Shown here in pieces: positions 7,940-62,175 of a stretch of DNA of 64,000 bases (the stretch's first letter is position 1; each line of letters starts with the position of its first letter). The stretch covers positions 1 to 64,000 of IMG/VR virus record IMGVR_UViG_3300032238_001058; one strand, written 5' to 3'. The notes below the pieces were generated by a model that saw nothing but the letters and a program-made list of their open reading frames with translations, did not search any database and was not told the DNA's origin. A program made the position numbers and the translations under genes. This DNA comes from a virus.

Positions 7940-8234
7940 CATAGGAATCTGCATGGTGAAGTACAAACTTCAAATCAAAATACTCAGGATCATCTTTGTC
8001 TTTAGGATGGTATGTAGCTACAAATCCACCACTACTAACTTCCTTCTCAGCAATGCAGTCACGCAGTAAGTTACGTGCCATTGCTTTAAGTCTGGGCAGT
8101 GTTGGAACTGAACGTCCAATACTATCTGTTGTTGCCCATTGCCAGTCAAGTGCTGACATAGCAATGTGTACTTTTTCAAAATTGAATTTATCAATGACTT
8201 CATTAATCATTGATTCATGTACTTTATTAATCAT
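7932..8234 (-). CDS. Hypothetical protein
   Basis: 100 aa, MINKVHESMINEVIDKFNF, with VATYHPKDKDDPEYFDL near the end; unknown. ATGA overlap with the upstream gene. Confidence 0.65.
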   Translation of the reverse strand: MINKVHESMINEVIDKFNFEKVHIAMSALDWQWATTDSIGRSVPTLPRLKAMARNLLRDCIAEKEVSSGGFVATYHPKDKDDPEYFDLKFVLHHADSYDD

Positions 8235-53053: not shown

Positions 53054-53188
53054 TCATACTTCATACATGCGACACTCCAAAGCTCCTGGATTTTCGTCGC
53101 AGTATTTTTGCCAGGCCAATGTTGGTGAGTGTTTTGTTTTTGGGCTTGGTTTTGATTTTTTTAACAGCCTAAGAAGTTGTTTGATCAT
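53054..53188 (-). CDS. 44-aa conserved cyanophage protein
   Basis: Basic N-terminus (MIKQLLRLLKKSKPSPKTK), then WQKYCDENPGALECRMYEV, a short cyanophage family with a conserved YC..NP...ECR end. ATGA overlap with the structural gene upstream. Confidence 0.65.
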   Translation of the reverse strand: MIKQLLRLLKKSKPSPKTKHSPTLAWQKYCDENPGALECRMYEV

Positions 53189-54102
53189 TGTCTGTTGGTT
53201 AAAGGTACAAAAATTTCAGGGAAACGATTGGTGTCTTGATGCTCATTCTGCCATGCAATTTTCCATTCGGATAGCGAGTGATCGTGTACGGTGTTGAAAT
53301 ACGCATCATCGCCGACTTCTACAGTGATTCCATACTGTCCATACGTAGATGGAGGAATAGTACCCCCAACATCCATTACTGATGTAGCAGATATTTCAAC
53401 ACTGCCTGTGTTTTGAATGATAAAAGGAGTTTCAGTAACAATGTATAGATCTGATGGGATAACAACTGTTGTCAATACAGGACTTACAACAGCTTGTGAC
53501 TGTTGTGCACTTTCTTGAATAAAAATACTTCCATCTAAATCTTCCAGTTCAAACAACATTTCTGCATCTGGAAACTCAATAACAACTCCTAGTTCATAGG
53601 CAAGAGGTTCATTGCGTGTGGTAGAAACACAAATTAAATAGCTTCCTGCTTCCAATGGGTAGTACCGTTCGTCCCCACGGTCAAGACGCAAACGATCAAA
53701 AGTATTGTACAAATCAGACTGCGCACTCATCACCGTATTTAAATACGGAATATATAGTTGTCCATCAGCATACGTAGTGATAGAGTCAGCACCAAAAATT
53801 TCTTGACCTTGGATTGGATTTTTGTTTAAGTCATAGGCAGAAATCTGAATGTAATTAGGACGCGGCGGCCCCTTGGCAAGAATCAACCATGCAGGAGACG
53901 CAATGTTTATCTGAAACCAATGATTGTACGTGCCACCACCAAAACCGCCATTTGAATTTTGGTTTGTATCCGCACGCCCAACAACTTTATTTTGCGGTCC
54001 CAGGGTTCCTTTTAAGTATCGAAGTGATGTGGAACTAAACGTACCAAGTACTAAAGGGTTATTAAAAGTTCTTTGTGCTTGCGTAGCTGTACTGCGAGAC
54101 AT
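53185..54102 (-). CDS. Structural protein, probably tail/baseplate
   Basis: 305 aa, beta-rich (ISAYDLNKNPIQGQ, AYELGVVIEFPDAEML), without catalytic motifs; NHWFQINIASPAWLILA suggests a carbohydrate-binding-like sandwich. Conserved type in cyanophages as far as I can tell. Confidence 0.65.
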   Translation of the reverse strand: MSRSTATQAQRTFNNPLVLGTFSSTSLRYLKGTLGPQNKVVGRADTNQNSNGGFGGGTYNHWFQINIASPAWLILAKGPPRPNYIQISAYDLNKNPIQGQEIFGADSITTYADGQLYIPYLNTVMSAQSDLYNTFDRLRLDRGDERYYPLEAGSYLICVSTTRNEPLAYELGVVIEFPDAEMLFELEDLDGSIFIQESAQQSQAVVSPVLTTVVIPSDLYIVTETPFIIQNTGSVEISATSVMDVGGTIPPSTYGQYGITVEVGDDAYFNTVHDHSLSEWKIAWQNEHQDTNRFPEIFVPLTNRQ

Positions 54103-54126: not shown

Positions 54127-54804
54127 TCAATCATAATCGGGGGTGTTTTTATGAGCCAATGGATGTTGAATAGTCTGTTTGTATTCACGTTTTGTCAGTA
54201 TTTCTGGCACACCACGACGACATGCTTCGCTATAAAGCATTAGTTTTTCATACTCAAACTCAGGGAAGAACGGATGAATATTAGCTGGTGGAAAAATTCT
54301 GTTCCAACTTGTAATCAAATGTAAAGGATTAAGGCAGTTTTTGTTATTGCAAGTGCGTGTCACTCGCATAGAACCAACGTCACCCCATGCACATTGATAG
54401 ATTAATTTATGGGCTGTTTGATTGTTGTTTGTTTTGTTGTTCGCCAGGTTTCTATAGGAAGGTAATCCGTAACGAGAACGCGCAACTCCTGGTGCCTCCC
54501 AACAATCTTCCGCATGTCCTACTGGGATCTGCTTCCAAATTCGGGCATATTGGTGTTTGCAATCGTTACTTAAATAATTAACGTCAAATCCACAGATATT
54601 GCTACGGATTTTTTGTGCACAGTGATAGCACCAATGCTTAGTTTTTTCTCTGATGGAATGATTGTGAAGACATGGATACCCTTTGTAGTAACCGTGGGAA
54701 TCAAGTTCTTCTTTTGACAACTTATCAATCTCAGGAATTGGTGGGTAATCAGAAGGCGCTAAGACTGCTTGTCGTAGTGGACGGTTGTCTAGTGTGTTTG
54801 CCAT
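54127..54804 (-). CDS. HNH/zinc-binding protein
   Basis: 225 aa. Two Cys/His clusters: CLHNHSIREKTKHWCYHC (residues ~45-63) and TCNNKNCLNPLHL, the latter as in HNH or His-Cys homing nucleases. Separated by 3 nt from another HNH gene. Confidence 0.65.
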   Translation of the reverse strand: MANTLDNRPLRQAVLAPSDYPPIPEIDKLSKEELDSHGYYKGYPCLHNHSIREKTKHWCYHCAQKIRSNICGFDVNYLSNDCKHQYARIWKQIPVGHAEDCWEAPGVARSRYGLPSYRNLANNKTNNNQTAHKLIYQCAWGDVGSMRVTRTCNNKNCLNPLHLITSWNRIFPPANIHPFFPEFEYEKLMLYSEACRRGVPEILTKREYKQTIQHPLAHKNTPDYD

Positions 54805-54807
54805 GAT

Positions 54808-55215
54808 TCACACCTCCTGCAATTTATTGTTCATTGCAATGACCTCTGCATCGGTCAAACCGACTTTGATTGCAGCTCGACAGTAAGAACGTTTGACGGA
54901 ATTACGTGCCTTTCTCTGGCGCAATACCAACTCTTTTCTGTTGTCTTTCTCCAAGTTGTCTTCACCATGTACTACGTCTGCTGCCCCAGGGTCCTCGCCA
55001 GTGCGTAGGTAGTACACGATTCGGTGTGCCACGTAAGGAGTGCCGCAGAGCCAAACCTTGTACACCCCATGGACTCGGTCCAACCTGCCAGCCATCTCTC
55101 CTGCCTTGTGGCGTTGAAAAGACATCGTCCATACCAGGGCACTGGGGAACTCATCCGAAAGTGCCAAGCGTTCTTGGATGTACCAGAGGGGCATCTGGTC
55201 GGTGTAGGTGCGCAT
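54808..55215 (-). CDS. HNH endonuclease-like protein
   Basis: 135 aa. VYKVWLCGTPYVAHRIVYYL, LRTGEDPGAADVVHGEDN and DNRKEL follow the phage HNH pattern (HR, H, N). Start follows the iteron-rich region directly. Confidence 0.75.
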   Translation of the reverse strand: MRTYTDQMPLWYIQERLALSDEFPSALVWTMSFQRHKAGEMAGRLDRVHGVYKVWLCGTPYVAHRIVYYLRTGEDPGAADVVHGEDNLEKDNRKELVLRQRKARNSVKRSYCRAAIKVGLTDAEVIAMNNKLQEV

Positions 55216-55240: not shown

Positions 55241-55623
55241 ATACCAAGTATAGCGGCAAACGTCAGTGAAAGTACGGTATAGCGGGTAAATTCTCGATTT
55301 ATTTCCCGCTATACGCTTAATTGAACTTATCCTAGAGAAAAACGAACTTATGGAAAAGTTAGGTTTTCTGGAAAAGTTATGTATGTATAGCGGGAAAGTT
55401 CTGACTTTTACTTGTAGTACATTTGTTTCCCCCGGACCCCCGGTGTTCTCACCACCGTCTCATCTTAAGACTGAAACCCCCAGAACTTTCCACCTATACA
55501 TGGCCAACCTGGTGACCAAACCTAACTTTTCCATAAGTTCGTTTTTCCTAATAACAAGATGAATTAAGCGTATAGCAGGAAATAACAGGGGGTGTTTTCC
55601 AGCTATACCGTGTTTTTGCCCAC
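55241..55623. repeat. Gene-free long inverted repeat with iteron-like motifs
   Basis: Arms at about 55273-55402 and 55482-55611 are imperfect inverted copies, including a stretch of ~30 identical bases (around 55339-55367 and 55519-55547). The motif GTATAGC(G/A/T)GG, in either orientation, occurs about seven times (near 55250, 55278, 55305, 55385, 55492, 55569, 55602). No ORF. Candidate replication origin or complex operator; a transcript would fold into a long hairpin. Confidence 0.75.
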
Positions 55624-55650
55624 AAAAAAGCCCCCACTTACTGTGGAGGC
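55624..55650 (-). terminator. Rho-independent terminator
   Basis: 8-bp stem (55630-55637 with 55643-55650, one G-U), 5-nt loop and six T; ends the glycosyltransferase transcript. Confidence 0.85.
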
Positions 55651-55672: not shown

Positions 55673-56944
55673 TTACGCAGCACTTCCCCCAACGATGCGT
55701 TTGTTTTGTTTATTGCGTGCCTTCTTTGGTTTTGGTGTCTCAACCGAGACTGCCTTATTCCCTTGGCTCAGCACGTCCTCAAAGATGCCGCCAAACTGAG
55801 ACGCAACTGTGTCCCATGAGAACTGTGGGTCTGTAGCACGTTCTTTACATTTGCTGCCAACATGGTTGTGATAGACCTTGTCTTCGTACAGCTCATTCAA
55901 CAGTTCAGTAAGGTGCTCTGAGGATGGGCATGGCATTTCCCTTCCGTAGTTGGTATCCACATCAACGTGGTCACAACGAATCAACGATCCATACCCTTCA
56001 AAAATCTCTTTACACGACGTATGGTCTGGCACCACTTGTGGCACACCACATGCAGCGTGTTCAAAGTTGACTAGACCCCAGCCCTCACCTTTACAGGTAT
56101 TGACGCCAACGTCAACAGCGTTGTAGATCGTATTGAGCATCTCAACTGAGACGTTTGGAGGTCCTTCCGTTTGCGTGGTCATGATGATGCGGTTGTTAGG
56201 GTTGAGGCCAACACGTTGCATCTCACGTCCAAAGATCTGCATTACTTCCCAACCCTGGTCTTTGAGGCCCATGTGCAGGTACAGTTTTGCTTCTGGTTTA
56301 TCTATGGCAAACTTTGCAAATCCCTGGATAGTAATGTCAATTCGTTTACGGAATTGATTCCTATTTCCGTTAAACACAATAAAATCATCAGGCGACAGCC
56401 CAAGAGCTTTACGACACTCAACTTTGTCTTTGGGATAGAACTGCCCTGGTGTTACACCATGAGGAATTACAGTAATTGGCTTAGTAATACCTCCTTTAAT
56501 AAATTCGTATGCGCCAAATTCTGTGTAAGAAATTACAGCATCCCAATCATTAGCTGTATCTGCTAAACACCCTGTCCAACCATACGAATCCATTGGCGCA
56601 TATCCAACAAATTTAAAGCTGCCAGCCTGATGCAGATCTTTAATTTGGCTGTACTGCTCATTAATGATCCACATATCGTTAATTGTGAATACAATGTCAG
56701 GCCGTTCACGCTCAACAATTTCACGAATCCGTTGCTCACCAAACGGCGCAGTTTGAAAACGATTCGACGAAGGATACATTTTGTATTCCTTTTGTTGCTC
56801 ACAGGGATCTCCCCACCAGTTGTGACCTAACACAACAATGTCAAAGGTATCTTTTAAATGTTTCAACACGTTTTCCGTGACACGCGCAAAACCTGTCATG
56901 GCAACAATGTCACCACACCACAGTAATTTAGGTTTGTTTTCCAA
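55673..56944 (-). CDS. GT-B glycosyltransferase (GT4-like)
   Basis: 423 aa. N-terminal Rossmann-like half (LLWCGDIVAMTGFARVTENV), C-terminal donor-binding half with NGNRNQFRKR and CKGEGWGLVNFEHAACG (the E-x7-E pattern). Transfers a sugar from a nucleotide donor; target could be virion protein, DNA or host surface. Ends with a basic tail. Confidence 0.85.
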   Translation of the reverse strand: MENKPKLLWCGDIVAMTGFARVTENVLKHLKDTFDIVVLGHNWWGDPCEQQKEYKMYPSSNRFQTAPFGEQRIREIVERERPDIVFTINDMWIINEQYSQIKDLHQAGSFKFVGYAPMDSYGWTGCLADTANDWDAVISYTEFGAYEFIKGGITKPITVIPHGVTPGQFYPKDKVECRKALGLSPDDFIVFNGNRNQFRKRIDITIQGFAKFAIDKPEAKLYLHMGLKDQGWEVMQIFGREMQRVGLNPNNRIIMTTQTEGPPNVSVEMLNTIYNAVDVGVNTCKGEGWGLVNFEHAACGVPQVVPDHTSCKEIFEGYGSLIRCDHVDVDTNYGREMPCPSSEHLTELLNELYEDKVYHNHVGSKCKERATDPQFSWDTVASQFGGIFEDVLSQGNKAVSVETPKPKKARNKQNKRIVGGSAA

Positions 56945-57909: not shown

Positions 57910-58242
57910 TCGAGTTAACTCTTTTTCTTCCGCAGTTTTTGCTTTGAGTTTTGTTTTTAAAAACTCAGCTGCTCGATGTGTTTGTGTTGTATCGCCACAC
58001 GTATACAAGTCGATTGCTGCATACCCAATCTCTGGCCAGGTATGGATTGATGCATGGGACTCAGCCAATAAAGCAAGTAGTGTCACACCTTGTGGTTTAA
58101 ACTTCTCACCAATGATGCGAAGAATATTTGCCTTTGCCATAACAAGAGAAGCCTCAAGCAAACGTTGAAGCTCCTCATAGTCATTCAAGACCTTTGGATC
58201 ACAGTCATATAGATCCAGGATTAAATGGCGTCCGTTACTCAC
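57880..58242 (-). CDS. speD: S-adenosylmethionine decarboxylase proenzyme
   Basis: 120 aa, normal bacterial class. ESHASIHTWPE at 61-71 holds the Glu-Ser self-cleavage site that makes the pyruvoyl group, His67, and Cys82 (TCG). Supplies decarboxylated SAM for polyamine synthesis; common in cyanophages. ATGA overlap with the primase-helicase. Confidence 0.95.
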   Translation of the reverse strand: MSNGRHLILDLYDCDPKVLNDYEELQRLLEASLVMAKANILRIIGEKFKPQGVTLLALLAESHASIHTWPEIGYAAIDLYTCGDTTQTHRAAEFLKTKLKAKTAEEKELTRSVTPPNLLL

Positions 58243-60878
58243 ATCTCGGCAGGCATATCCTCTATCTTCGCATCATTAGCTTTGATTTTTACTGCACCAT
58301 AGAAAGCTCGGTACTCATCTGGGTTTGCAGCCAACTCAACAATCGAAGGATAATCTTCATATTTGCCGTTGCTGTCCCTAATTCCTATGTTATTGACACG
58401 AAGACCTGCCGTATTCTTCATGGTGTAGGCATTTAGTTTTAACTGGTGTTGAATGATGTCCATCAACAGCACTTCAAAACGAGCACGTGAAATAATACCT
58501 ACATTACAGCTACGACAGAACTCTGCATAACTTGGATACAACCATGTCCCCCAATTGATATAAACACCGGACCCACCACCTGCTGCAACCTTACAGTATC
58601 CAACAGGAGTTGAAGCATTTGGCTCAAACACAATCTTGTTATCAAGCCAATCAAGCATGGGGTTAGAACGTAGAGACTGTGCTTTCTCATACTTTTGAAA
58701 GAACGGTACATGTGTACTGGTTTCCATCAGAAGGGAACGCATGTCATCTTCACTCATATCCAGGACCCAATTAACAAGCCCTGGTAGCAATGGCGCAAAC
58801 ACACCCTGCGGATTCCCCTTGGCATCAAATTTAATTAGTTCTTTTTGCTCTGCTTGTCCACCTTCAAATGGACGATCGAACGGAATGGTGAGACGGCGAC
58901 GAGCAAGGCCAGAAGTATAGTCAGTTGATTGGATGGCTTCATTGGCAGTAATAATGACAACACCGTGGTACTGGAAGGGATCCATTGCATCTCCCTGATA
59001 TTTGCGCTCGGCACGAATCCAGTCACATCCTGTGATTGCTTTTAGTTTTGATACAGAGCCACCCCAACGGTCTGCATCCTGGAACAGCAACAGCTTTTTA
59101 TTAAAACAGTACGCAGCTTCAAACCTATTTTTTTCTAGGTTCTCCATATCAGTGGAGTAGCAATTTGCTTTACCAACCAATGCAACAGCAAGGTTTGCAT
59201 ACGTGGACTTACCTGATTTTCCTGGGCCTACAATCTCAAGAAACTTTTGGATTTCATAACGACCCAAGAGTGTTGCCCTTAGCCATGCCCGCAGCACTTG
59301 CGTACGATTCCAACTGTCATGTTGGGTATGCTTCAGCCATTGGACAATGGCTTCACAAGTAGCAGACGGATCATACTCATATGGCATTTGCTGAGTCATG
59401 TACATATTCCGTTTAAACGGAAGTAGTTCACGCGTTTCAACATTTAAAATGCCATTTGTAAATAACAAGTAGTCAGTGCCGTCATACCATTCACTAAATG
59501 CCAAGGCCGCTTGAAGTTGAATAAAAACGTCATTCATCATGTTTGACGTAAAACCCTTTGGAAGAAACTTGCCAAGCATTGTGAGGTCTTGACGAATCTT
59601 ACCCAGTGCTTCGATTTTTGTTAGGGGCGTCCAGACATGACAACGTGTGTCATAAATAAAGAATTGATTATGCGGCAAGCTGTACAACACGCCACCTTTG
59701 TATTTACCTAGAAGTACATCAACAATTTCAGAAGTAGACGGATTCCTTTTCCCATCTTTATCAGTGTTAACATCCTCACCCATGGCAATAGCATCTTCGA
59801 GTGAGTTTGCAATATGCCCAATGGTGGACATAGCTTGTTCTTCTTTTTCTTTTGGAATTGTTACAACCATCCCATCAGCGTCTTCAATGGCCTTCAGTGC
59901 TGCAGCCGCAGCCTCAAGCGTCTCATCATCTACACTCTCTGCCCGGTAGTCCTGGGGCACCACAAAGCCGTGCTCCTGGGCAGTCTGGATGAGCGTACCA
60001 ATACCACGACCACCGCCCTTGCTAAAGGAAAGCCACCGTTTGTGGCATTCACCTTCCCGATACTTATTCGACTGTTGTGACCAGTTATCCCAGTCATCTA
60101 GCAGGGATTCGTCTAAACTGTGGAGTGACTGACCGATCATGATCCAGATGTCATAATCGTCTGCAGCTTCCGAAGGCAAAGCCCACATTGCCTTGACGGC
60201 TAGCTTCATGTCACGGTCAACAGTGATCACACTGTGAACAACGCTGCTTGGCATTACGACACGACTGATCTCAGTCGAGGGGATTCCCTGCTTGACATTC
60301 TTGTTAATGATGGCTGTCAACAACCATTCCGGAAATTCAGGCAATTGCTGGGACCACTCAAACCCACAGTTTTCACCGGTAAAATACCCATCAGTTTCAG
60401 GGTGCAAACCCATTAACACACCTTGGTGTTTTTTCCACAGGATTTCAAGTTTTTCTTTGTCTTCTTCTGCATGCCACGTATATTTGTTACGCGCAAAATG
60501 CTTGTGTTTTTCTCGGTCTAACCGATATAGTTTCCGTTCACGTCCAATTTTGCCACTAAAAATTGTTAAGGTTGGTGGCAGTGCGTCTTGTAAGGGTAAT
60601 CCGGAGATGTCTTCGAGTAACTTGTAGACACTCGGGCCATCAACATCCACCCACACCAAACCATAAGGATGGTTGTAAACAGGCCCACCCAGTAGCCCGA
60701 TGGCTTTACAGTTTCCTGTAATGATTTCTTCTTCAATTTCTCGTACACTAAAAGGTTTGTTTTGCCAACCCGCAACATAAGGATCTTTGTTCCCACCTAA
60801 TGGGGTTAAGGGCCAATCAATGGGGATGTAGTCAAGACGAATTTCACCGGGCTTGAGGAGTTGTTGGTTTGCGTTCAT
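58239..60878 (-). CDS. P4-type DNA primase-helicase
   Basis: 879 aa. N-terminal PrimPol-like domain (YGLVWVDVDG, Asp78/Asp80), a primase C-terminal domain (DIWIMIGQSLHSLD) near residue 245, and a superfamily 3 helicase with GPGKSGKST (~residue 552), LLLFQDADRWGG (~597) and VIITANEAIQS. Primes and unwinds DNA at the fork. Confidence 0.9.
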   Translation of the reverse strand: MNANQQLLKPGEIRLDYIPIDWPLTPLGGNKDPYVAGWQNKPFSVREIEEEIITGNCKAIGLLGGPVYNHPYGLVWVDVDGPSVYKLLEDISGLPLQDALPPTLTIFSGKIGRERKLYRLDREKHKHFARNKYTWHAEEDKEKLEILWKKHQGVLMGLHPETDGYFTGENCGFEWSQQLPEFPEWLLTAIINKNVKQGIPSTEISRVVMPSSVVHSVITVDRDMKLAVKAMWALPSEAADDYDIWIMIGQSLHSLDESLLDDWDNWSQQSNKYREGECHKRWLSFSKGGGRGIGTLIQTAQEHGFVVPQDYRAESVDDETLEAAAAALKAIEDADGMVVTIPKEKEEQAMSTIGHIANSLEDAIAMGEDVNTDKDGKRNPSTSEIVDVLLGKYKGGVLYSLPHNQFFIYDTRCHVWTPLTKIEALGKIRQDLTMLGKFLPKGFTSNMMNDVFIQLQAALAFSEWYDGTDYLLFTNGILNVETRELLPFKRNMYMTQQMPYEYDPSATCEAIVQWLKHTQHDSWNRTQVLRAWLRATLLGRYEIQKFLEIVGPGKSGKSTYANLAVALVGKANCYSTDMENLEKNRFEAAYCFNKKLLLFQDADRWGGSVSKLKAITGCDWIRAERKYQGDAMDPFQYHGVVIITANEAIQSTDYTSGLARRRLTIPFDRPFEGGQAEQKELIKFDAKGNPQGVFAPLLPGLVNWVLDMSEDDMRSLLMETSTHVPFFQKYEKAQSLRSNPMLDWLDNKIVFEPNASTPVGYCKVAAGGGSGVYINWGTWLYPSYAEFCRSCNVGIISRARFEVLLMDIIQHQLKLNAYTMKNTAGLRVNNIGIRDSNGKYEDYPSIVELAANPDEYRAFYGAVKIKANDAKIEDMPAEM

Positions 60879-61320: not shown

Positions 61321-62175
61321 TCAAATCAAATCAGGATCATACACATTGCAGCGTTCAATCTGACTGTAGTATTCTTCTACTACTTTCAACCAGTCACCCC
61401 TCAAAGAATCTAAAAACTTCCTGGAAATCTTAAAAACTTGAGTGCGAACAGGCGTTGACACCAGAATGGCTGCCTGCTGGACCCGCATACCAAGAGTCTG
61501 TTCAATCCCAAGGTCGTATGCAGCTAGTTGTTTGCAGGTTTTTTTAAATTTCATGTGCCCACCAAGGAGATCTCTCCATTCAGGCGATCCCTTCTCCAAG
61601 TCCTTGGGCCATTTCCTGCTATAAGGTTTGACACTGGTCTTTAAATCAGCCAGTGTCAGCTTGTTATTCACCACACCAATGATGTCAGGTGAGCCAACCC
61701 AAGCCCTGCCTTCCTCATCATGGGCCCACACCCTACCAATTCCATCATCTGATAAAGTGAATTGATGTTTGTCCAGTAGAGGAGTTTCTGCCCACAACAC
61801 CTCGTCAAACTGATCAAGAATCCCTGGCATACCAGCCCAAAAGTCCTGGTACTCTTCAGCAATCTCAGGGTTTTTATCCCCTTTTAGGTAACACTCCATG
61901 CCATAGTGGATAGCTGTACCACGTTCAGCAGCAGCTTCTTTAACACCTGGATTGTTTTTACTCCACATCTCCAGCTTCCGTTTGTTTGCTTCGGAGGCTG
62001 TTTCTGAAATTATGGTTGTGACCGATGGCGCCGGCCCAGTTACAAACGGGGTATGGTAATGTCGCTTTCCGTTAATTGTAATACGGGCGGGGCGGCTGTT
62101 CAGCTCCCGCATCAACTCTGGTTGCTCTTGATATTTCAGCGACCATGGATCGCCTGCTTCAATTTTAGCAACCAT
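61321..62175 (-). CDS. PD-(D/E)XK nuclease (RecB/Cas4-like)
   Basis: 284 aa. ERGTAIHYGMECYLKG near residue 85, the catalytic AWVGSPDIIGV...LADLKTSV (D, then DxK) near 155-180, and KTCKQLAAYDLG as the downstream Q-motif. An exonuclease of this kind helps recombination or host-DNA breakdown. First gene of the replication operon. Confidence 0.8.
   Translation of the reverse strand: MVAKIEAGDPWSLKYQEQPELMRELNSRPARITINGKRHYHTPFVTGPAPSVTTIISETASEANKRKLEMWSKNNPGVKEAAAERGTAIHYGMECYLKGDKNPEIAEEYQDFWAGMPGILDQFDEVLWAETPLLDKHQFTLSDDGIGRVWAHDEEGRAWVGSPDIIGVVNNKLTLADLKTSVKPYSRKWPKDLEKGSPEWRDLLGGHMKFKKTCKQLAAYDLGIEQTLGMRVQQAAILVSTPVRTQVFKISRKFLDSLRGDWLKVVEEYYSQIERCNVYDPDLI

What the first reader, a model, noticed from the sequence alone, without database searches (positions are those of the whole stretch)
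55241..55623. 340-bp inverted repeat with seven iteron-like motifs in a gene-free gap
Two ~130-nt arms are inverted imperfect copies with a fully identical core of about 30 bases, and GTATAGCGGG-like motifs are spaced through both. It lies after a strong terminator, so it is not just a 3' UTR. Iterons, inverted symmetry and lack of genes fit a replication origin; the primase-helicase lies 3-6 kb away. A long dsRNA-like transcript or master operator are alternatives.
Basis: partly seen in the sequence, partly recalled or inferred. Interest (0 to 1): 0.65.

Follow-up and report, generated by a model that had tools for sequence, protein, structure and literature searches.

The report
Cyanophage inverted-repeat probable replication origin
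In a family of viruses that infect freshwater cyanobacteria, a short gene-free stretch keeps a large mirror-image layout although its letters keep changing; it is probably where the virus starts copying its DNA, and it changes together with DNA-cutting enzymes encoded next to it.

Summary
Window 55274-55611 is a long inverted repeat (IR) with seven GTATAGCGGG-like boxes that are essentially confined to it in the 82.6 kb record. The phage belongs to the Synechococcus phage S-EIV1 lineage. In 163 of 173 loci the gene order is primase-helicase, glycosyltransferase, IR, HNH-type endonuclease gene(s). A significant IR occurs in about 80% of relatives, S-EIV1 included, although its sequence is mostly replaced.

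The symmetry is kept in DNA, not RNA: arm mismatches are 166 G.U to 164 A.C, against 47:1 in the neighbouring terminator stems. The primase has PrimPol-PriCT2-D5-SF3 domains, and its C-terminal model best matches the phage P4 origin-binding domain. In pRN1 and SaPI replicons such proteins use a stem-loop or iteron origin just downstream of their gene.

Best reading: a bidirectional replication origin (about 0.62). Against certainty: GC skew does not mark an origin there, and IR divergence follows the adjacent HNH genes rather than the primase. The box-binding protein is therefore unproven, and an origin-versus-nuclease arms race or an operator role remains open. No experiment was possible.

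The parts
55274..55611 (.). large inverted repeat, dyad symmetric; single-stranded DNA folds at -82 kcal/mol (z -11)
55337..55366 (.). perfect 30-nt core of one arm (B-box region)
   Evidence: sequence; arms
55518..55547 (.). perfect 30-nt core of the other arm
   Evidence: sequence; arms
55302..55314 (-). A-box GTATAGCGGGAAA (pairs with 55570-55582 across the dyad)
55570..55582 (+). A-box GTATAGCAGGAAA
55277..55289 (+). outer A-box GTATAGCGGGTAA (pairs with 55596-55608)
55596..55608 (-). outer A-box GTATAGCTGGAAA
55385..55397 (+). inner A-box GTATAGCGGGAAA (pairs with 55487-55499)
55487..55499 (-). inner A-box GTATAGGTGGAAA
55248..55260 (+). extra A-box outside the dyad, about 30 bp upstream of the downstream HNH gene's start; operator-like position
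   Evidence: S-EIV1 has an equivalent copy just before its endonuclease gene
55457..55462 (+). central GTCTCA (TGAGAC); some copy lies within +-130 bp of the IR centre in 45 of 54 divergent loci (about 5 expected)
55624..55650 (-). intrinsic terminator of the glycosyltransferase gene (stem GCCTCCAC/GTGGGGGC plus T6)
55673..56944 (-). glycosyltransferase gene upstream of the IR
   Evidence: PHROG 2170, 2.6e-60
58239..60878 (-). primase-helicase: Prim-Pol, PriCT_2, D5_N, DUF5906 (SF3 helicase region), C-terminal domain modelled like the P4 origin-binding domain
54808..55215 (-). HNH_3-type endonuclease gene directly downstream of the IR; its divergence tracks IR divergence best
54127..54804 (-). 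second endonuclease gene ('MAN' type, zinc-knuckle and HNH), in 82 of 83 relatives

Best explanation
The inverted repeat is the phage's replication origin, of the kind used by self-loading PrimPol/SF3 helicase initiators, in an enlarged dyad-symmetric form. Inferred steps: the primase-helicase encoded upstream binds the region through its C-terminal winged-helix domain; two helicase rings assemble, one per arm; the A+T-richer segments beside the central TGAGAC core melt; primers are laid down and two forks leave. The box sequences turn over quickly while the layout is kept. Shown: the layout, its conservation, its DNA-level nature, its uniqueness, the gene neighbourhood and the initiator's domain make-up. 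Not shown: binding, melting, initiation, direction, or which protein reads the A-boxes.
For: IR with scores above shuffles in about 66 of 81 loci, centred mostly 150-240 bp after the glycosyltransferase stop, and in 68 of 83 unique loci at score 50 or more. Top large IR genome-wide in 9 of 13 whole records, S-EIV1 included. Primase upstream in the same orientation in nearly all loci. In four rearranged loci the IR stays after the primase and before the endonuclease, not after the glycosyltransferase. Arms G.U 166 against A.C 164, control terminator stems 47 against 1. Primase C-terminal model: best PDB match 1KA8, phage P4 origin-binding domain, prob 1.00, E 4e-3; only PDB sequence match 7OLA/7OM0, a DNA primase. 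GTCTCA near the IR centre in 45 of 54 loci; genome mean 0.33 per kb against 2-5 per kb around the IR centre. A+T peaks at -80 and +40 to +80 from the centre. Literature: pRN1, same domain architecture, needs a symmetric, sequence-variable stem-loop downstream of its replication gene (PMC4234260); SaPI/PICI origins lie directly 3' of rep with two iteron sets flanking an AT-rich stretch (PMC6092414; PMC7581432).
Against: IR divergence follows the HNH_3 gene (partial rank correlation 0.75) and the second endonuclease (0.49), not the primase C-terminus (0.06) or the glycosyltransferase (0.07). L054, L056 and L059 have 98-99% identical primases, yet their A-boxes differ in every copy. Local GC skew falls across the IR, the sign of a cumulative maximum rather than the usual origin minimum, and whole-genome extremes lie elsewhere. 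Roughly a fifth of relatives have only weak symmetry. No replication data exist here. The P4 match is on a model of moderate confidence (pLDDT 74).
Confidence: 0.62

Rival explanations
1. The boxes are the target of the HNH endonucleases encoded next door. These home into, or cut, the same region of competing phages or satellites, as the origin-directed nuclease Odn cuts satellite origin iterons. Each phage's own boxes are changed so that it is spared, giving rapid joint evolution. This is compatible with the region also being the origin.
For: IR divergence tracks the HNH_3 gene with partial correlation 0.75 over 35 pairs. L054/L056/L059: HNH_3 72-81% identical while the other conserved genes are mostly 88-99%. 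Odn precedent: a homing-endonuclease-like protein cuts origin iterons and selects for iteron change (PMC8263062).
Against: About 17 of 83 unique loci lack HNH_3 yet keep the IR. In L071/L073/L157 against L156 the IR differs (75-77%) while HNH_3 is 90-92% identical. The pairs are not independent, and a joint recombination tract could give the same pattern. It does not explain why dyad symmetry over about 340 bp is kept.
Confidence: 0.2
2. The region is mainly a regulatory hub: an operator array that a phage DNA-binding protein, perhaps one of the downstream HNH proteins, uses to control the downstream genes.
For: An extra A-box lies just upstream of the first downstream gene in the window, and in S-EIV1 it lies between a TATAAT and the endonuclease start. 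IR and downstream genes co-diverge.
Against: A promoter-operator needs no two-fold symmetry over about 340 bp; the mirrored half faces the 3' end of the upstream gene. No sigma-70-like promoter was found by consensus scan. Boxes occur nowhere else in the genome, so it is no master operator.
Confidence: 0.13
3. The IR acts as a folded RNA or long dsRNA-like transcript.
For: It folds far better than shuffles, z -11 with DNA parameters.
Against: G.U is no commoner than A.C among arm mismatches (166:164), whereas real RNA stems next to it show 47:1. No Rfam family above threshold.
Confidence: 0.02
4. A replication terminus, resolution or other DNA-processing site rather than an origin.
For: Local GC skew falls across the IR in 54 loci, also at four-fold sites: the sign usual for a terminus.
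Against: The IR is not the global cumulative maximum in most of 13 genomes; the shift could be a compositional property of the HNH genes. The IR-initiator neighbourhood fits origins better.
Confidence: 0.05

Closest known systems
pRN1-family plasmid origin (Sulfolobus), and the stem-loop proposed for phage BIP-1 (PMC4234260)
   Same: Initiator with PrimPol, SF3 helicase and winged-helix domains; noncoding symmetric element after the replication gene and a terminator; sequence not conserved but symmetry conserved.
   Different: About 100 nt with a 21-bp stem against about 340 bp here; directly after the replication gene there, separated by one or two genes here; no iteron-like box sets described there; origin function in pRN1 supported genetically, here only inferred.
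SaPI/PICI replication origins (PMC6092414, PMC7581432)
   Same: Self-loading D5/primase-C-terminal type helicase; origin downstream of rep; two sets of short repeats flanking an AT-richer stretch; repeat sequences differ between elements.
   Different: Here the two sets form one long inverted repeat with further paired blocks and a conserved central TGAGAC; the carrier is a cyanophage, not a satellite island; repeat changes do not follow the helicase C-terminus.
Phage P4 alpha protein and its iteron origin
   Same: Primase-helicase with a C-terminal origin-binding domain; the window protein's C-terminal model best matches 1KA8.
   Different: From memory, P4 uses two separate sites (ori and crr) of type I iterons, not one dyad; iteron sequence unrelated.
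ICP1 Odn, origin-directed nuclease (PMC8263062)
   Same: Homing-type nuclease whose specificity is tied to origin repeats, with fast repeat diversification.
   Different: Odn acts on a satellite and is not an HNH enzyme of the kind seen here; here HNH genes sit beside the phage's own IR and no cutting is known.

Membership tests
pRN1-type stem-loop origin | replication protein with PrimPol, SF3 helicase and C-terminal winged-helix domain | tested here: met
   Pfam Prim-Pol, PriCT_2, D5_N, DUF5906; C-terminal model with best match P4 origin-binding domain
pRN1-type stem-loop origin | symmetric noncoding element directly 3' of the replication gene | tested here: inconclusive
   Element always 3' of the primase and in the same order, but 1.5-2.7 kb away, with the glycosyltransferase usually between; about 0.5 kb away in the rearranged loci
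pRN1-type stem-loop origin | symmetry conserved although sequence is not | tested here: met
pRN1-type stem-loop origin | element needed for replication; restoring stem symmetry restores it | not testable with these tools
   needs genetics
[quoted passage not shown]
   Paired box sets in mirror order; central A+T 0.58-0.68 against background 0.55, only modestly AT-rich
SaPI/PICI origin | cognate helicase C-terminus binds the iterons | tested here: inconclusive
   Winged-helix match, but box changes do not track the C-terminus; no binding assay
Structured RNA / dsRNA element | G.U pairs tolerated over A.C in stems | tested here: not met
   166:164 against 47:1 in control terminators
Bidirectional origin by GC skew | cumulative skew minimum at the site | tested here: not met
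   local fall at the IR; global extremes elsewhere
Master operator (dispersed sites) | sites in several promoters of the genome | tested here: not met
   boxes confined to this gap
Homing or origin-directed nuclease target | nuclease gene next to its target, and target cut in nuclease-free relatives | not testable with these tools
   adjacency and co-divergence seen; cutting needs assays

The most novel reading that the evidence does not exclude
The replication origin of a whole cyanophage lineage is locked in rapid coevolution with origin-adjacent HNH nucleases. The nucleases read the A/B boxes, either to attack rival origins or to nick their own as an initiator, while the primase-helicase recognises only the dyad layout and the constant central TGAGAC core.
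Probability: 0.22. Interest if true: 0.82.

Novelty: new variant of a known kind. Interest (0 to 1): 0.6.

Why it matters
My literature searches found no replication origin described for this freshwater cyanophage lineage, which the matching contigs show is common in metagenomes. A dyad origin whose layout is kept while its sequence is replaced, next to co-diverging nucleases, would give a natural series of origin/nuclease pairs to test how phages tell their own origin from a rival's, and would extend the pRN1/SaPI class of self-loading initiators to large phages of cyanobacteria.

Tried and rejected
RNA element: rejected by the G.U/A.C test with terminator control and no Rfam match. Sequence search for the IR in annotated phages and for its core in viral contigs: no match, explained by turnover. 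GC skew as proof of origin: local shift found but wrong sign, genome-wide pattern unclear. Covariation with primase windows: inconclusive on all pairs; on close pairs the signal lies with HNH_3 and MAN. Telomere-resolution site: considered, not favoured because the centre is a non-palindromic 77-nt spacer (from memory, such sites have a perfect palindrome at the centre). Packaging site: considered, not favoured because, from memory, such sites usually lie near the terminase genes; not tested. An association with the glycosyltransferase itself: rejected by four rearranged loci.

Full report
OBSERVATION. The self-inverted match spans 55274-55611 and scores 132 against at most 32 in 30 dinucleotide shuffles. 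Two 105-nt arms are 79% complementary and share a perfect 30-nt core (55337-55366 / 55518-55547). Seven GTATAGCGGGAAA-like boxes lie in the gap, one more in the rest of the window and none in the remaining 18.6 kb. Six boxes pair across the dyad; the seventh (55248-55260) lies outside it, next to the start of the downstream gene. The terminator is that of the minus-strand glycosyltransferase gene.

WHAT IT BELONGS TO. The record is an 82.6 kb viral contig. Its closest annotated relative is Synechococcus phage S-EIV1 (KJ410740, 79.2 kb, circular record): glycosyltransferase 65%, primase 56%, second endonuclease 47%. The neighbourhood, in the direction of transcription, is primase-helicase, S-adenosylmethionine decarboxylase-like gene (identified in L152), glycosyltransferase, terminator, IR, HNH_3-type gene (often), second 'MAN' endonuclease, then a 305-aa gene of unknown function. 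Of 173 loci examined, 163 show this order, five of them cut before the primase and 26 lacking HNH_3. Loci from different searches overlap in contigs.

CONSERVATION. About 66 of 81 loci fetched by the glycosyltransferase have an IR above shuffles, mostly centred 150-240 bp after its stop; by a score cut-off, 68 of 83 unique loci are strong. In whole records the IR is the top large inverted repeat in 9 of 13, S-EIV1 included. Sequence turns over almost completely between subgroups while layout stays: outer paired A-box, A+T-richer stretch, B-box, inner segment. In L050/L054/L056/L059 the A-box copies read CGGAATGAA, CACTATGAA, CACAATGAA and CGGAATGAA, changed together within each phage.

DNA, NOT RNA. 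Among mismatches inside the arms of 42 dereplicated loci there are 166 G.U and 164 A.C; an RNA stem should tolerate G.U far better. The same count on the adjacent terminator stems, a genuine RNA hairpin, gives 47 to 1. So the symmetry is kept in double-stranded DNA, as for protein sites in mirror order, or in extruded DNA.

CENTRAL MOTIF. GTCTCA/TGAGAC occurs within 130 bp of the IR centre in 45 of 54 divergent loci against about 5 expected. It peaks at the centre; genome-wide density is 0.33 per kb against 2-5 per kb around the IR centre, and it is also raised 3-5 kb upstream. It is the most widely shared sequence in an otherwise variable element.

THE INITIATOR CANDIDATE. The window primase has Prim-Pol, PriCT_2, D5_N and DUF5906 domains. 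Its only PDB sequence match is 7OLA/7OM0, a DNA primase (from memory, SaPI5 Rep1). The C-terminal 190 residues, modelled from 38 relatives (pLDDT 74), match best the phage P4 origin-binding domain 1KA8 (prob 1.00, E 4e-3, TM 0.68 by target length). In pRN1, a protein of this architecture needs a symmetric, sequence-variable stem-loop just downstream of its gene, and the authors proposed the same for a phage (PMC4234260). SaPI/PICI origins lie directly 3' of rep, with two iteron sets around an AT-rich stretch (PMC6092414; PMC7581432). This is the basis for calling the IR an origin; it is inference by architecture, not a demonstration.

WHAT DOES NOT FIT. Over 35 close pairs (not independent) IR divergence tracks the HNH_3 protein (partial rank correlation 0.75, given whole-primase identity) and the MAN protein (0.49), but not the primase C-terminus (0.06), glycosyltransferase (0.07) or 305-aa protein (-0.07). 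An all-pairs analysis was inconclusive. L054, L056 and L059 share primases at 98-99% but differ in A-box and in HNH_3. Either the primase does not read the A-boxes, or it tolerates their change. Exceptions exist: in L071/L073/L157 against L156 the IR differs although HNH_3 is 90-92% identical. A shared recombination tract could also produce the pattern. The Odn nuclease of ICP1, which cuts satellite origin iterons and selects for iteron change, is a precedent for nuclease-driven origin diversification (PMC8263062).

SKEW. In 54 loci GC skew falls across the IR centre with gene direction unchanged, also at four-fold sites: about 0 in primase and glycosyltransferase, -0.10 to -0.18 in the genes after the IR. 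The sign is that of a cumulative maximum. Whole-genome extremes in 13 records are mostly elsewhere. Skew therefore does not support an origin here and may reflect composition of the HNH genes.

LINKAGE. In L127, L133, L134 and L152 the order is primase, endonuclease gene(s), glycosyltransferase, and in the three whose IR position was checked (L127, L133, L152) the IR lies between primase and endonuclease. The IR is thus tied to the primase and/or the endonuclease genes, not to the glycosyltransferase; moving either the glycosyltransferase or the IR-endonuclease block explains it.

VERDICT. Observation confirmed; origin reading likely but unproven (0.62), as an enlarged dyad variant of the pRN1/SaPI kind. 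The most novel open reading is an origin coevolving with adjacent HNH nucleases (0.22). Counts of loci and the rank correlations come from related sequences and should be read as descriptive.

Noticed in passing
L084 8100-8145 (S-EIV1, KJ410740): A third copy of S-EIV1's own box (ATCTTACATATCC) lies between a TATAAT and the start of the endonuclease ORF near locus position 8140; the annotated start of that gene (8377) looks too late.
   Followed up: partly
53185-54102 (-): 305-aa protein of unknown function, with a relative in 81 of 83 unique loci, directly after the endonuclease gene; no PHROG, Pfam or NCBIfam match.
   Followed up: no
54127-54804 (-): The second endonuclease ('MAN' type) has among annotated phages a relative only in S-EIV1; its conserved CxHxHxIR...HxCYxC region resembles a zinc knuckle.
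   Followed up: partly
IR and the 5 kb upstream, 13 genomes and 54 loci: GTCTCA is concentrated around the IR and also 3-5 kb upstream of it, in the primase region, but is not over-represented genome-wide.
   Followed up: partly
L060, L064 (arms about 840 bp apart) and L077 (about 890 bp apart): In these loci the inverted arms lie far apart, suggesting an insertion inside the IR; not examined.
   Followed up: no
L061, L067, L070, L074, L080: Extra coding-looking sequence, cupin-like by eye in L061, lies between the glycosyltransferase and the IR in these loci.
   Followed up: no
61612-61624 (-): The only stray A-box-like site (two mismatches) outside the gap, inside the exonuclease gene; probably chance.
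   Followed up: no
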